Positions 48,477 through 52,587 of a stretch of DNA of 64,000 nt are shown here, piece after piece. Within the stretch, counting starts at the first letter, position 1, and every line of letters starts with the position of its first letter. The stretch comes from an uncultured Pseudomonadota bacterium (lineage in GTDB: Bacteria; Pseudomonadota; Gammaproteobacteria; Methylococcales; Methylomonadaceae). The notes under the pieces are model-generated. The model saw only the letters and a list, made by a program, of their open reading frames with translations. It did no database searches and was not told the DNA's origin. The translations under genes were made by a program, and so were the position numbers. The DNA is taken from contig CAIQDI010000032.1 in assembly GCA_903870545.1 (NCBI GenBank), positions 1-64,000 of the forward strand, given 5' to 3'.

Positions 48477-48553
48477 GCGCCCGTAGCTCAGCTGGATAGA
48501 GCGCAGCCCTCCGGAGGCTGAGGTCAGAGGTTCGAATCCGCTCGGGCGCACCA
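48477..48553 (+). tRNA. tRNA-Arg (CCG anticodon), CCA encoded
   Basis: A 77-nt cloverleaf. Acceptor GCGCCCG pairs with CGGGCGC, then discriminator A and CCA (48551-48553). The anticodon stem CAGCC/GGCTG (48504-48508, 48516-48520) encloses the loop CTCCGGA, with anticodon CCG at 48511-48513. The T arm has GGTTCGAATCC. The Zorya-like operon starts 206 bp downstream, so this tRNA may mark an insertion site. I found no repeat of its 3' end up to 52700. Confidence 0.96.
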
Positions 48554-48759: not shown

Positions 48760-51042
48760 ATGAGTCATTTCATGGAAATTCAACAAATTTCAGAACAAGT
48801 TTTTGCCAGTTCAACGAACATTCTTGCCGCGATAATTATCATTGGTTTAACGCTGCTGGCATTATTCGGCACATTCAGCAAATCAAGTAATCACAAAATT
48901 AGACACTTCGCCCGACAATCACCCGCAATTTTAGCAACGGTTGGGATATTTTTCAGTTTTTGGGGAATTTCAATTGGCTTAATTGGTTTAGATTTAAACG
49001 ACATTCAAAACAGTATTCCAAAATTATTGGACGGTTTGAAAGTTAAATTTATCGCCAGTTTGATGGGCATTGGCGCGTCGATTATCGTCCGAATTGCTCA
49101 GAATTTTGCGGTTGAAGATATTATCGAAAAAGACAATGACGAAAAAATCGTTAATTTGCTTGGCGATATTCACAAGGTTTTAGCCAATAACGCCAATAAC
49201 AGTCCCGAAACATTATTGCAGGAATTGAAAGAAGAAATTGGTAAATTACCGATTGAATTTGGAAAACAAACGCTATTACTTGAGAGCATCAAAACCAGTT
49301 TGGCTGGTGATAACGATGGGTCGGTGACAACTCAATTATTAAAAGTCAGAACTGCAATAACAGATAAATTGGATTCAATAGATTCTAACAATAGGCAACG
49401 TAGCGAATCACTCAATAGCACATTGACTTCTAAATTCGATAATTTGACACAGGAATTTAGAAACTTTGCAGAAAAAGCTGCGGAAAATAATTCTAAAGCG
49501 TTTATTGAAGCATTAGCTACAGCAATGAATGAGTTTAATAAAAATCTTGCCGAGCAGTTTGGCGAAAACTTCAAACAGCTAAATCAAGCCGTCGGCGAAT
49601 TATTGACGTGGCAAGACAATTACAAATCGCACGTTGAAACGTTAACGGGCAATTTTGAAGTCGCGTTAAACAGCGTCGCCACAATTCAAACCGCATTTAG
49701 TGATATTCAAACGCGCTCCGAAAGTTTCACCGAAGTTTCTACGGAATTAGGCGGCATTTTGCAAAAACTCGATTTACAGTTACAGGATTTGAATCACCAT
49801 CTGAAATCTTTAGACCAAGTCGCAGACAGCGCAAAACAAGCGTTCCCAATCATTGAAGATAATTTAATAAAATTGACGACGGGCTTTAAAAAATCGACGG
49901 AACAATCACTCGCGGACATTACCAGCACCGTTGAAACGGTCGGTGAAAATTTGGTTGAAACGACAAGCCGATTAAAAGATACGATGGGCAAATTGCGTGA
50001 TTCAATGGAAAATCAACGTGAAACACTCGAAAAAACCAGCGACGAATTTAAAGAAGTCGTCGGCGTAACGTTGAAAAGTTTGGCGAAAGAAACGAAAGCC
50101 AGTATTGAAACTTATCAGGAATCATTACAGGAAGCCGTCACCACGCAATTGGACAGCATCCATTCCAACATTAAACAATCCAACGCGGTGGTGAATTCTA
50201 CCATTCAAAACGCCAGTACCGAATTTGAAAAAGCGATTGTCGAAACGGGCGCAGTTCTTAAAACTAGCACCAACACTGTGGCGAATCATTTGAGCGGTGC
50301 AACCGATGCCATGCAAGGCATGATGGTAGAACAACAAAGCGCGTTGAATTCTACAAGTGCCGAATTTAAAACTGTGGTGAATCAAACCTTGCGCGATTTA
50401 TCCCGCGATACGCAAGTCAGCATTCACGATTATCAAACGTCGTTACAACAAGCGGTGACGCAACAACTGAATAGCATTGATGCCAACATTCAACAATCCA
50501 ATGCTGTGGTAAATTCAACGATTCAAAACGCCAGTGCCACGTTTGAAAAGTCGATTACTGAAACGGGTTTGATATTGAAAGCAACAACGAATACTGTAAG
50601 TGACCACATTAGTAATGTTGCTTATCAATTGAGCAATTCGACCAATGCGATGAAAGAAATGATAGACAATCAAAAAGATACTTTGAACGCAACGAGCAAT
50701 GAATTTAGAACTGTGGTGAATCAAACGTTGCGCGATTTAAGTGAGCAATCAAAATTATCAATTAGGGAATACGAAAATAATTTACATAATGCTGTTACTA
50801 ACGCCAGCAAAGAATTCAACCGGTTGTTACAGGAAAATGCACAGAATAGTAACGATATTCTAAAGCAACAAACCCAATTACTTGATACAGCTTTACAAAC
50901 TAAATTGAAAAAAACAATTGAAGAAATGGGAAGTCATTTAGTTTCTTTATCAGCAAAATTTGTTGAGGATTACACGCCACTAACGGAAAAACTGAGAGAA
51001 GTTGTTAGATTAGCCGATGACTTGAATCGGGGCAGATTATGA
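48760..51042 (+). CDS. zorA: ZorA-like MotA/ExbB-family membrane protein with long coiled-coil tail
   Basis: A 760-residue protein. Three membrane segments lie at about 19-39 (ILAAIIIIGLTLLALFGTF), 56-77 (ILATVGIFFSFWGISIGLIGL) and 94-113 (VKFIASLMGIGASIIVRIA), with the MotA/ExbB-type FWGISIGL and KFIASLMG context. The remaining 640 residues are a charged, Gln/Asn/Ser/Thr-rich coiled coil without Pro-rich breaks. About 429-760 hold three tandem copies of a ~106-113-residue unit. In Zorya anti-phage systems ZorA pentamers with a ZorB dimer form a proton-driven motor whose long tail signals to a nuclease. The 4 bp overlap with the MotB-like gene fits. No good ribosome site is seen at ATG 48760; ATG 48772 is the alternative. 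Confidence 0.85.
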   Translation: MSHFMEIQQISEQVFASSTNILAAIIIIGLTLLALFGTFSKSSNHKIRHFARQSPAILATVGIFFSFWGISIGLIGLDLNDIQNSIPKLLDGLKVKFIASLMGIGASIIVRIAQNFAVEDIIEKDNDEKIVNLLGDIHKVLANNANNSPETLLQELKEEIGKLPIEFGKQTLLLESIKTSLAGDNDGSVTTQLLKVRTAITDKLDSIDSNNRQRSESLNSTLTSKFDNLTQEFRNFAEKAAENNSKAFIEALATAMNEFNKNLAEQFGENFKQLNQAVGELLTWQDNYKSHVETLTGNFEVALNSVATIQTAFSDIQTRSESFTEVSTELGGILQKLDLQLQDLNHHLKSLDQVADSAKQAFPIIEDNLIKLTTGFKKSTEQSLADITSTVETVGENLVETTSRLKDTMGKLRDSMENQRETLEKTSDEFKEVVGVTLKSLAKETKASIETYQESLQEAVTTQLDSIHSNIKQSNAVVNSTIQNASTEFEKAIVETGAVLKTSTNTVANHLSGATDAMQGMMVEQQSALNSTSAEFKTVVNQTLRDLSRDTQVSIHDYQTSLQQAVTQQLNSIDANIQQSNAVVNSTIQNASATFEKSITETGLILKATTNTVSDHISNVAYQLSNSTNAMKEMIDNQKDTLNATSNEFRTVVNQTLRDLSEQSKLSIREYENNLHNAVTNASKEFNRLLQENAQNSNDILKQQTQLLDTALQTKLKKTIEEMGSHLVSLSAKFVEDYTPLTEKLREVVRLADDLNRGRL
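50044..50820 (+). repeat. tandem ~318-339 bp repeat encoding the ZorA tail
   Basis: Units begin at 50044, 50362 and 50701 with GAATTTAAAGAAGTC, GAATTTAAAACTGTG and GAATTTAGAACTGTG. Each carries (S/T)xEFxxVVxxTLxxLxxxxxxSIxxY, and the first two also share QSNAVVNSTIQNAS 318 bp apart (50179 and 50497). Spacing is 106 then 113 codons. The third unit is degenerate after about 130 bp. Confidence 0.8.
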
Positions 51043-51749
51043 AACACCAGCACACAGAGGAAGAAGGCGAACACTGGCTTTCTGTCAGTGACATGATGTC
51101 AGGTTTAATGGTGATTTTTTTGTTTATTGCCATTACTTACATGATGCAGGTCAGCAAAATCAGCAAGGGAATCGTTGATATTGTAGCGACTGACGAAATA
51201 ACCAAAGTTGCCATTTATGAAGGCTTGCAGGCTGAATTTAAAGACGATTTAAAAAAATGGAATGCCGAAATCGATAAGCCATCTTTAGCATTTCGTTTTA
51301 AAGAACCAGACGTATTATTCAACGTTGGCGATGCGGACGTTAAAGACAAATTCAAGGTTATTTTGAATGACTTTTTCCCGCGTTATATCAAAATTCTCAA
51401 GCAGTATCGGGCAGATATTGAAAATCAGGCTGATATTGAAGAGATTCGCATCGAAGGTCACACATCGTCGGAATGGAGTAAAGATATGGCGTTGAATGAA
51501 AAAGCCTATTTTTTGAATATGGAATTATCTCAAGATAGAACGCGAGAAACTTTAGAATACTGTTTTATGTTGCCGAGTATTAGTGACGAACGATTTTGGA
51601 TAAAGCAAATTTTGACGGCAAACGGTTTATCTTCAAGCAAACCAATTTTGGTCAATAACGAAGAAGATAAAATACATTCGCGGCGAGTTGAATTCAAAGT
51701 TAAAACCAATTTAGAAACACGCATCTCGAAATATCGACAAGGTTCATAA
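51039..51749 (+). CDS. zorB: ZorB-like MotB/OmpA-family membrane protein
   Basis: A 236-residue protein with one membrane segment (about 18-40) that starts with an Asp: VSDMMSGLMVIFLFIAITYMM, Asp18, in the place of the proton-carrying Asp of MotB/ZorB. A linker (about 45-110) leads to an OmpA/MotB peptidoglycan-binding domain with EIRIEGHTSSEWS near 130 and LSQDRTRETLEY near 165, ending with RRVEFKVKT. The protein would anchor the ZorA motor to the cell wall. It overlaps zorA by 4 bp and is 1 bp from the HNH gene, so the three form one translation-coupled operon. Flagellar motB is unlikely given this partner set. Confidence 0.87.
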   Translation: MKHQHTEEEGEHWLSVSDMMSGLMVIFLFIAITYMMQVSKISKGIVDIVATDEITKVAIYEGLQAEFKDDLKKWNAEIDKPSLAFRFKEPDVLFNVGDADVKDKFKVILNDFFPRYIKILKQYRADIENQADIEEIRIEGHTSSEWSKDMALNEKAYFLNMELSQDRTRETLEYCFMLPSISDERFWIKQILTANGLSSSKPILVNNEEDKIHSRRVEFKVKTNLETRISKYRQGS

Positions 51750-51750
51750 G

Positions 51751-52587
51751 ATGAAGCTCGATATTGATTTTTCTGGATTAGAAAGAATCGTAAAAAAGAT
51801 GGGTGCAACTGCTTTAAACTGGACAATTCCAGCTGTAGCTTCTGTGAAGCCCCCCGATTTCGGTGAAATAGATTTTAGTAAGCTAGCAACAACAGGCGTT
51901 CCTGTTGATTTGAACGATGTTCATTTTGATAGTATAAATCGACGTGCGACTACTCCAGACGGAAAACAGATTTTATTGCATATCAAAAAAGTGAATAATT
52001 TTGGTGACAACCGATTACCAAAATTCCATTTTTATGAATGCCGAACATTAAAGGACATGAAAAATAAGGGGAAATTTGAAAAATATGTCATGACACAAAG
52101 GAAAGATGGTTATTTTTTAATGGATGTAAATACTGGCAGCGGCTATATAGAACGCGAAGAAAAGTTAGATGTTTGCAAAAATTGTTTGAACTGGTACAAA
52201 AGCGAATATGGGAAAAAATATAGTGTTGAAACGTTTGATATTCCAGCATTTTTTGAACATTTTGGCGATTCTCGATTTACAGAAATGCCAAAACATACCG
52301 ATATTTTTGCACCAAAATCTGGTTACACCGATGATTGGAACGATATTTCAAAACAACGCAAAGAACAATTTGGTTATATTTGTCAGCAATGCAGCATTGA
52401 CTTGAGTAATTACAAAAAATTTTTACAAACGCATCACGTCAATGGCGTGGAAAATGACAATAGACATAATAATTTAAAAGTGTTGTGTATTGAATGTCAC
52501 AGCAAACAGTTTGATCATAATCACATGAAAAACAGTCACGCAGACCAAATTTTAGAAATTCAGAAAATTCGACAATCAGCGTGGTAA
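51751..52587 (+). CDS. HNH endonuclease, candidate Zorya type II effector (ZorE-like)
   Basis: A 278-residue protein. The C-terminal HNH domain has zinc-type CQQC at 211-214, HH at 228-229 in THHVNGVENDNRHNNLKV and CIECH near 246-250, where His, Asn and His-type metal residues are kept. A second CxxC (CKNC, 142-145) lies in the middle. The first 140 residues have no family I recognise and could be a DNA- or motor-binding region. Base composition looks AT-richer than the chromosome genes around it. ZorE in Zorya type II is an HNH nuclease encoded right after zorB, exactly this position. I cannot confirm ZorE orthology without a profile search. Confidence 0.78.
   Translation: MKLDIDFSGLERIVKKMGATALNWTIPAVASVKPPDFGEIDFSKLATTGVPVDLNDVHFDSINRRATTPDGKQILLHIKKVNNFGDNRLPKFHFYECRTLKDMKNKGKFEKYVMTQRKDGYFLMDVNTGSGYIEREEKLDVCKNCLNWYKSEYGKKYSVETFDIPAFFEHFGDSRFTEMPKHTDIFAPKSGYTDDWNDISKQRKEQFGYICQQCSIDLSNYKKFLQTHHVNGVENDNRHNNLKVLCIECHSKQFDHNHMKNSHADQILEIQKIRQSAW

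What the first reader, a model, noticed from the sequence alone, without database searches (positions are those of the whole stretch)
50044..50820. Tandem duplication lengthening the ZorA tail
Three copies of a 106-113 residue coiled-coil unit follow one another, with the first two still similar at DNA level. Tail length affects how ZorA reaches into the cytoplasm, so copy number could set signalling distance or vary between strains.
Basis: seen in the sequence. Interest (0 to 1): 0.6.

Follow-up and report, generated by a model that had tools for sequence, protein, structure and literature searches.

The report
ZorA defence rod lengthened in steps
The long intracellular rod of a bacterial anti-phage motor protein has been lengthened by repeating one coiled-coil segment, and related species carry one to four copies, which makes it possible to test whether rod length matters for defence.

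Summary
The window carries a type II Zorya operon (zorA-zorB-zorE) of a Methylococcales-type bacterium. ZorA (760 aa) has two full units (106 and 113 aa) plus a partial third, between a conserved tail core and a conserved C-terminal tip; the solved 378-aa Sulfuricurvum ZorA lacks this stretch. Copy number is not conserved: 1, 1, 2, 3 and 4 units in five related systems (the 4-unit gene has a broken frame). Three units are mosaics (8 of 8 scans, 0/2000 permutations), the pattern left by unequal crossing-over. Another genus of the same class repeats the phenomenon: of 18 measured ZorAs, 11 have an interior tail of exactly 336 residues, 5 have 424, and one each 391 and 376. Seven indel lengths are close to whole turns of the 3.66-residue hydrophobic repeat of these tails. 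One ZorA joins a motor end 97% identical to a long-tailed relative to a tail end 98% identical to a short-tailed one. This sample does not bear out a published remark that component size is well conserved within each Zorya family. Whether length sets reach or signalling is untested, strain-level variation could not be tested, and neutral tolerance of in-register lengths remains a strong rival.

The parts
48760..51042 (+). zorA, 760 aa, type II Zorya rotor protein (MotA/TolQ/ExbB-like) with extended cytoplasmic tail
   Evidence: PADLOC ZorA2 best hit 8.6e-93; PDB 8vvi_F (S. kujiense ZorA) 1.8e-45
49447..49965 (+). conserved tail core (about residues 230-402) with the EQFGENF motif; heptad-like hydrophobic period 3.52
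   Evidence: invariant columns in alignment A2; period over residues 230-400
50014..50331 (+). unit 1 (residues 419-524, 106 aa)
   Evidence: unit profile 209.9 bits, a seed of that profile; 90% aa identity to unit 1 of G010
50332..50670 (+). unit 2 (residues 525-637, 113 aa = 106 + a 7-residue insertion); mosaic, switch near codons 51-55
   Evidence: unit profile 137.9 bits; two breakpoint scans, 0/2000 each
50671..50859 (+). terminal partial unit (residues 638-700); mosaic, 5' unit-2-like and 3' like the terminal unit of G001, switch near codons 18-24
   Evidence: unit profile 42.8 bits; three breakpoint scans, 0/2000 each
50860..51039 (+). conserved C-terminal tip (about residues 701-760, FVEDYTPLTEKLREVV)
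   Evidence: residues 696-752 align with the C terminus of 8vvi_F, directly after its tail core, without the units; invariant columns
51039..51749 (+). zorB, 236 aa, stator/peptidoglycan-binding subunit
   Evidence: PADLOC ZorB2 6.2e-86; ion-path Asp (D24 of E. coli) aligned at D18, and H141, S143, R215 kept; R230 is Ser
51751..52587 (+). zorE, 278 aa, HNH effector
   Evidence: PADLOC ZorE2 2.6e-64; HHVNG...NNLKVLC..CH stretch
48477..48553 (+). tRNA-Arg (CCG) just upstream of zorA
   Evidence: ARAGORN on L090, coordinates converted

Best explanation
This is a type II Zorya operon whose ZorA rod has been lengthened by in-register tandem units inserted between a fixed tail core and a fixed C-terminal tip. 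SHOWN: the repeat, its place, variable copy number in relatives, mosaic units, a 3.66-residue hydrophobic period, and the same step-wise length change in a second genus. INFERRED: units arise and are lost by unequal homologous crossing-over inside zorA; only products that keep the core of the ZorA coiled coil in phase survive; each 106-aa unit adds up to about 16 nm of helix (0.15 nm per residue) to a five-chain rod, moving the tip further from the membrane without changing motor or tip. In the published model phage-triggered ion flow turns ZorA and the rod recruits ZorE; here the units would act as spacer and torque shaft between motor and tip.
For: Repeat far above shuffles. Unit counts (profile domains above 20 bits) G252=1, G253=1, G001=2, window=3, G010=4, and no domain above 10 bits in the 16 other ZorAs of the same search. 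ZorB identity to the window (G010 89%, G001 78%, G252 and G253 64%) gives an order along which copy number rises, G010 apart from the window by one unit. phmmer to 8vvi_F matches residues 36-118, 216-382 and 696-752 and skips the whole repeat zone. Mosaic units at three different breakpoints, 0/2000 permutations in 8 of 8 scans of those three units. Interior motif-to-motif tail lengths: 267, 267, 355, 468, 589 in this clade; in the second genus 336 in 11, 424 in 5, 391 in 1 and 376 in 1 of 18 measured. Seven indel lengths (106, 7, 11, 11, 88, 33, 40) lie on average 0.038 turn from whole turns at period 3.66, against 0.25 when jittered by up to 5 aa, 0/20000; the period was measured in a separate call (67). 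Unit 1 of window and G010: dN/dS 0.14. The tail is needed for defence in both types (PMC11890865, sections 6 and 10 read).
Against: No experiment here shows that unit number changes rod length or defence. AlphaFold2 models are all-helical but poor (mean pLDDT 48.7 and 49.3); model 1 breaks the helix at 521-526 and 624-634, model 2 at about 508-521 and 603-612, close to or somewhat before the unit junctions at 524 and 637, so hinges or fold-back are possible. G010, the 4-unit case, has a broken zorA frame (218 + 653 aa). The register result depends on the period: the mean deviation is 0.071 turn at 3.64, 0.190 at 3.6 and 0.224 at 3.5; the seven indels are few, not all independent, and partly placed by the aligner. 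In-register lengths could reflect recombination that follows an existing 11-residue repeat rather than selection. The systems lie at different loci, so the copy-number series is between mobile homologues, not a vertical lineage.
Confidence: 0.8

Rival explanations
1. Neutral length: any tail that stays in helical register works, and unequal crossing-over makes copy number wander with no functional tuning.
For: Type II ZorA lengths range from 334 to 760 aa in 27 intact systems, which I presume to be functional; the units look like plain coiled coil (best Pfam match Apolipoprotein, 48.9 bits, below its cut-off of 90). Nothing here links length to a phenotype.
Against: Interior length is exactly 336 in 11 of 18 measured congeners, among them pairs only 60% identical in motor and neck (G1081 and G1130), which free drift would hardly keep; unit 1 has dN/dS 0.14 between window and G010.
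Confidence: 0.45
2. Diversified surface: extra and shuffled units change docking sites on the rod (for ZorE, or for phage counter-defence proteins), and length is a by-product.
For: Units are mosaics. The window's ZorE is 58% identical to G010's although their ZorB is 89%, while G010 and G001 ZorE are 84%; the ZorA tip shows the same contrast (distances 0.34 against 0.09).
Against: Across 24 systems the tail core correlates with ZorE at least as well as the tip does (partial r 0.51 against 0.42 given ZorB; 0.60 against 0.34 given each other), so the tip is not singled out, and the units themselves were not tested against ZorE.
Confidence: 0.15
3. Fold-back: each unit is an arm of a hairpin or thicker bundle, so units change thickness or flexibility, not reach.
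For: Both AlphaFold2 models break the helix at or before the unit junctions.
Against: Model confidence is low there; the hydrophobic period over residues 400-637 is a single strong peak; EM of S. kujiense and Shewanella ZorAB shows a rod-like extension (PMC11890865).
Confidence: 0.12
4. Assembly or sequencing artefact.
For: The five systems of this clade come from draft genomes of 39 to several hundred contigs; G010's frame is broken.
Against: Copies in the window are only 64% identical at DNA level, hard to explain as misassembly, and the phenomenon recurs in a second genus, including long-tailed genomes of 2-4 contigs (G790, G1059, G1043, G1007).
Confidence: 0.03

Closest known systems
Type II Zorya (ZorA2-ZorB2-ZorE), e.g. 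E. coli and Sulfuricurvum kujiense (PDB 8VVI)
   Same: Gene order, PADLOC type II models for all three proteins, conserved ZorB ion-path Asp and ZorE HNH stretch, conserved tail core and tip.
   Different: Tail lengthened by 106-aa tandem units not found in the S. kujiense protein or by profile in the E. coli one; below the NCBIfam equivalog cut-offs (132.7 of 700, 223.5 of 400 and 164.2 of 600 bits); ZorE shorter than the E. coli one (278 against 367 aa).
Type I Zorya ZorA (Shewanella ANA-3)
   Same: Long cytoplasmic extension seen as a rod (PMC11890865); weak PADLOC ZorA1 matches.
   Different: Best ZorA1 match 3.5e-13 against 8.6e-93 for ZorA2; ZorE here in place of ZorC/ZorD.
Bacterial chemoreceptor length classes
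   Same: Membrane signalling rod whose coiled coil differs between classes by in-register blocks: 12 to 32 paired heptads (PMC6628036, passage seen).
   Different: No homology claimed; those are paired heptads in a four-helix coil, these are hendecad-based units in a presumed five-chain rod.

Membership tests
Type II Zorya | ZorA of the ZorA2 class | tested here: met
   PADLOC ZorA2 8.6e-93 against best ZorA1 3.5e-13
Type II Zorya | ZorB2 next to ZorA with conserved ion-path Asp | tested here: met
   ZorB2 6.2e-86; D18 aligns with E. coli D24
Type II Zorya | ZorB peptidoglycan-binding residues (H141, S143, R215, R230 in the E. coli type II protein of PMC11890865) | tested here: inconclusive
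   three of four kept; R230 is Ser in the window and G010, Leu in G001 and G253
Type II Zorya | ZorE HNH nickase downstream | tested here: met
   ZorE2 2.6e-64; HNH stretch present; nickase activity not testable
Type II Zorya | NCBIfam equivalog cut-offs | tested here: not met
   132.7/700, 223.5/400 and 164.2/600 bits; the models may be drawn around the enterobacterial members (inference)
Type II Zorya | anti-phage activity | not testable with these tools
   needs a plaque assay
Intragenic tandem repeat shaped by unequal crossing-over | copy-number differences between homologues and mosaic units | tested here: met
Intragenic tandem repeat shaped by unequal crossing-over | within-species copy-number variation | not testable with these tools
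   one genome per species held; E. coli lacks the repeat

The most novel reading that the evidence does not exclude
Rod length in type II ZorA is a quantised, selectable parameter. Recombination between in-phase coiled-coil units, and swapping of whole tail ends between motors, moves a Zorya system among discrete length classes that alter where or when the tip delivers the effector, and so which phages are stopped.
Probability: 0.3. Interest if true: 0.8.

Novelty: new variant of a known kind. Interest (0 to 1): 0.6.

Why it matters
How the ZorA tail passes the signal from motor to nuclease is open: the published work shows that the tail is needed and proposes recruitment by rotation or rearrangement (PMC11890865, sections 6 and 10). 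Natural ZorAs that share motor and tip but differ by whole units are a ready-made length series: lengthen or shorten the rod by 88, 106 or 113 residues in phase, or by half a turn out of phase, and ask whether length, phase or neither matters. [quoted passage not shown]

Tried and rejected
Tandem Repeats Finder gave no row inside the units, as the copies are too diverged. A six-pattern scan of viral contigs confirmed no relative of ZorB; the phage collection gave one 46.6%-identical ZorB in an unannotated record. The genome-contig scan brought six loci, of which L007 and L008 mattered most. AlphaFold2 on full ZorA and on the tail gave low confidence, so no fold search was run. A spectrin-like reading (spectrin repeats are also about 106 aa, recalled) was set aside because one 3.66-residue period dominates residues 400-637. 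A partial Mantel test for tip-ZorE co-evolution over 24 systems did not single out the tip; it left out Prevotella and G790 by choice and G454 and L012 for want of the core motif.

Rows left out of the 28-system survey, although seen: G369 (order A-E-B, 422 aa), G285 (1340 aa, no ZorE hit), G074 (zorB split), L062 (G320's second system, no ZorE hit), L063 (G482, no ZorE hit), L009 (cut by the contig end), L010, L011, G060 and G222 (no ZorE hit), the phage record L074 (only ZorB hit), and seven loci with only a weak ZorB-like hit (L019-L022, L024, L025 and the remnant L006). Of 21 plasmid records with a ZorB match I fetched 6; of 7 non-own phylum genomes I fetched 6 (not G980). In the second genus 4 of 22 matches were not measured: G1017 (frame ends 72 residues after the motif) and three without the exact motif; ZorB and ZorE beside ZorA were checked there only for G859, G850 and G790. 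In one search, besides the window, G001 and G010, several other ZorAs also exceeded their 60 block shuffles: G285 clearly (640 against 83), and Vibrio coralliilyticus, Prevotella, L012, L011, G537 and G189 by smaller margins, so weak internal repeats are not unique to this clade.

Literature: 20 of 65 papers listed; 8 of 8; 1 of 1; 15 of 1551, a loose search; no listed title was on ZorA tail length, repeats or copy number, but two of these lists were capped. The main Nature paper on Zorya (Hu et al. 2025) is not held and was not read; it may treat tail length. Read: of PMC11890865 the abstract and sections 6 and 10; of PMC12904381, PMC13192584, PMC12505986 and PMC6628036 passages only.

Full report
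Observation. ZorA (48760-51042, 760 aa) contains a tandem repeat. Its best self-diagonals are at offsets 106 (score 298; residues 403-592 against 509-698) and 113 (216); 60 residue shuffles reached 63 and 60 shuffles of 11-residue blocks reached 78 at most. A profile built from three 106-aa copies (window unit 1, G010 units 1 and 2, which therefore match by construction) finds units in the window at residues 419-524, 525-635 and 638-727 with 210, 138 and 43 bits; a 14.9-bit match at 179-224 lies outside the array. The third copy is partial. DNA similarity between the first two is 71% and 73% in two blocks and 64% overall with dS about 2, so the event is old. The coordinates in the finding are right to within some tens of bases.

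Context. The operon is zorA-zorB-zorE, type II Zorya by PADLOC, though below the NCBIfam equivalog cut-offs. The lineage is inferred: same-genus genome G001 has a 24364-base contig like that of the Methylococcales record behind L008. The operon lies between a tRNA-Arg(CCG) that follows a serine-acetyltransferase-like gene and a convergent 4-alpha-glucanotransferase-like gene (names of these neighbours are from my reading). Of 16 congener loci around the first gene, three (L093, L094, L103) show the second gene directly after it, with the same tRNA between and no Zorya; in the other 13 the second gene was not within the fetched flank. The homologous operons of G010 and G001 lie beside other genes. 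So this looks like a mobile cassette, and the comparison is between homologues at different loci.

Place of the insert. The solved S. kujiense ZorA (378 aa, 8vvi_F) aligns to residues 36-118, 216-382 and then 696-752 of this protein, with nothing over the repeat. The units therefore sit between a conserved tail core and a conserved C-terminal tip, both rich in invariant columns over ten ZorAs.

Copy number. Of 237 genomes of the family, 14 (own included) have a ZorB match. Five of these carry close ZorAs; counting profile domains above 20 bits, G252 and G253 (another genus) have 1 unit, G001 2, the window 3, G010 4. Sixteen other ZorAs in the same search had no domain above 10 bits. ZorB identity to the window falls from G010 (89%) to G001 (78%) to G252 and G253 (64%). 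Interior tail length between fixed motifs is 267, 267, 355, 468 and 589 residues. G010's zorA is split (218 + 653 aa), so the 4-unit form may be a dead gene or a draft error. A sixth genome, G003, retains only a ZorA N-terminus and a ZorB C-terminus.

Mosaic units. In a codon alignment of units, G010 unit 2 is like window unit 2 and G010 unit 3 at its start and like unit 1 after codons 24-33, depending on the parents used. Window unit 2 switches near codons 51-55, and the window terminal unit near codons 18-24. All 8 scans of these three units gave 0 of 2000 permutations; scans of G010 unit 3 and G001 unit 1 were weaker (1 and 7 of 2000). A chimera with a U2 5' part and a U1 3' part between U1 and U2 is what one unequal crossover would leave. 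Gene conversion could also make such chimeras but would not by itself add a unit.

Second genus. A draw of 398 phylum genomes (8 with a match, own included) turned up three ZorAs of one genus of the same class with open frames of 680, 680 and 593 aa, each beside ZorB and ZorE. Searching the 227 held genomes of that genus found 22 with a match at E <= 1e-60; 18 could be measured. Interior length is exactly 336 in 11, 424 in 5, 391 in 1 and 376 in 1. The 424 class has an 88-residue insert; self-comparison of one of its members is best at offsets 11 and 44. The 376 form has a 40-residue insert at another site that looks like a tandem duplication (17 of 26 residues and 71% of DNA over its best 26 codons). 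G1081 has a motor/neck 97% identical to long-tailed G859 but a tail end 98% identical to short-tailed G1168, whose motor/neck is only 81% identical: tail length is exchanged as a block. (A label inside the script, and my notebook, say 12 for the short class; the recount gives 11.)

Register. Hydrophobic periodicity is 3.64-3.66 residues over residues 400-637 and 3.66 over 330-520 of G859 (0 of 500 shuffles), and 3.52 over residues 230-400. The seven indel lengths taken from the alignments (106, 7, 11, 11, 88, 33, 40) deviate on average 0.038 turn from whole turns at 3.66, against 0.25 for lengths jittered by up to 5 residues, 0 of 20000; the fit is period-dependent (0.071 at 3.64, 0.190 at 3.6, 0.224 at 3.5). 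The set is small, not fully independent, and some gaps were placed by the aligner. Either selection for a continuous coiled-coil core or recombination guided by the 11-residue subrepeat could give this.

Generality. In 27 intact type II systems ZorA was 334 to 760 aa (median 547), ZorB 223 to 276 (starts are the first possible start of each frame, so E. coli appears as 569 rather than the annotated 550; dropped rows are listed under Tried and rejected). [quoted passage not shown] this sample does not support that for ZorA II. In E. coli, whose ZorA2 has no repeat above shuffles, 526 of 5426 genomes matched, 522 over at least 80% of the gene; of the 30 records listed, 28 had one uninterrupted 1653-base match, one had an insertion element and one was a fragment. 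Some other type II ZorAs show weaker internal repeats, and G285's 1340-aa protein a strong one.

Function. In print: the tail is needed for defence in types I and II, forms a rod in EM, and is modelled as a five-helix bundle (PMC11890865). Inferred here: units lengthen the rod by up to about 16 nm each. AlphaFold2 gave all-helical but low-confidence models with breaks at or before the unit junctions. A lead: in the window both the ZorA tip and ZorE are divergent from G010 and G001, while ZorB is not divergent from G010; across 24 systems the tip was not specifically tied to ZorE.

Verdict. The repeat is real, varies in copy number, and belongs to a wider pattern of quantised, recombining ZorA tails. 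The claim that length tunes signalling is open.

Noticed in passing
51751-52587 and loci L007, L008: The window's ZorE is only 57-58% identical to those of G010 and G001, which are 84% identical to each other, although its ZorB is 89% identical to G010's: the effector looks swapped independently of the motor.
   Followed up: partly
28 type II systems: ZorE falls into two length groups, 265-303 and 361-382 aa; [quoted passage not shown] coli protein.
   Followed up: no
L059 3212-7234 (-): A 1340-aa ZorA2-like protein beside ZorB2, with strong internal repeats (best offset 64, score 640) that lie mostly before the conserved tail core; no ZorE hit in the fetched stretch, and a gene matching Mads-type defence models is adjacent.
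   Followed up: partly
L032 3134-3659 (G003): Remnant of the same operon: a ZorA N-terminus next to a ZorB C-terminus, with the whole tail lost.
   Followed up: no
L007 3363-5998 (G010): zorA reading frame broken before the tail core, either decay or a draft-assembly error, while zorB and zorE are open.
   Followed up: partly
48477-48553: tRNA-Arg(CCG) directly upstream of zorA; three of 16 congener loci show the same tRNA site without Zorya, suggesting an insertion site.
   Followed up: partly
L008 1473-8485 (G001): In G001 the Zorya operon sits between what I read as cell-wall elongation genes (mreD/PBP2-like before, RodA-like after; names recalled from sequence), an odd place for a defence cassette.
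   Followed up: no
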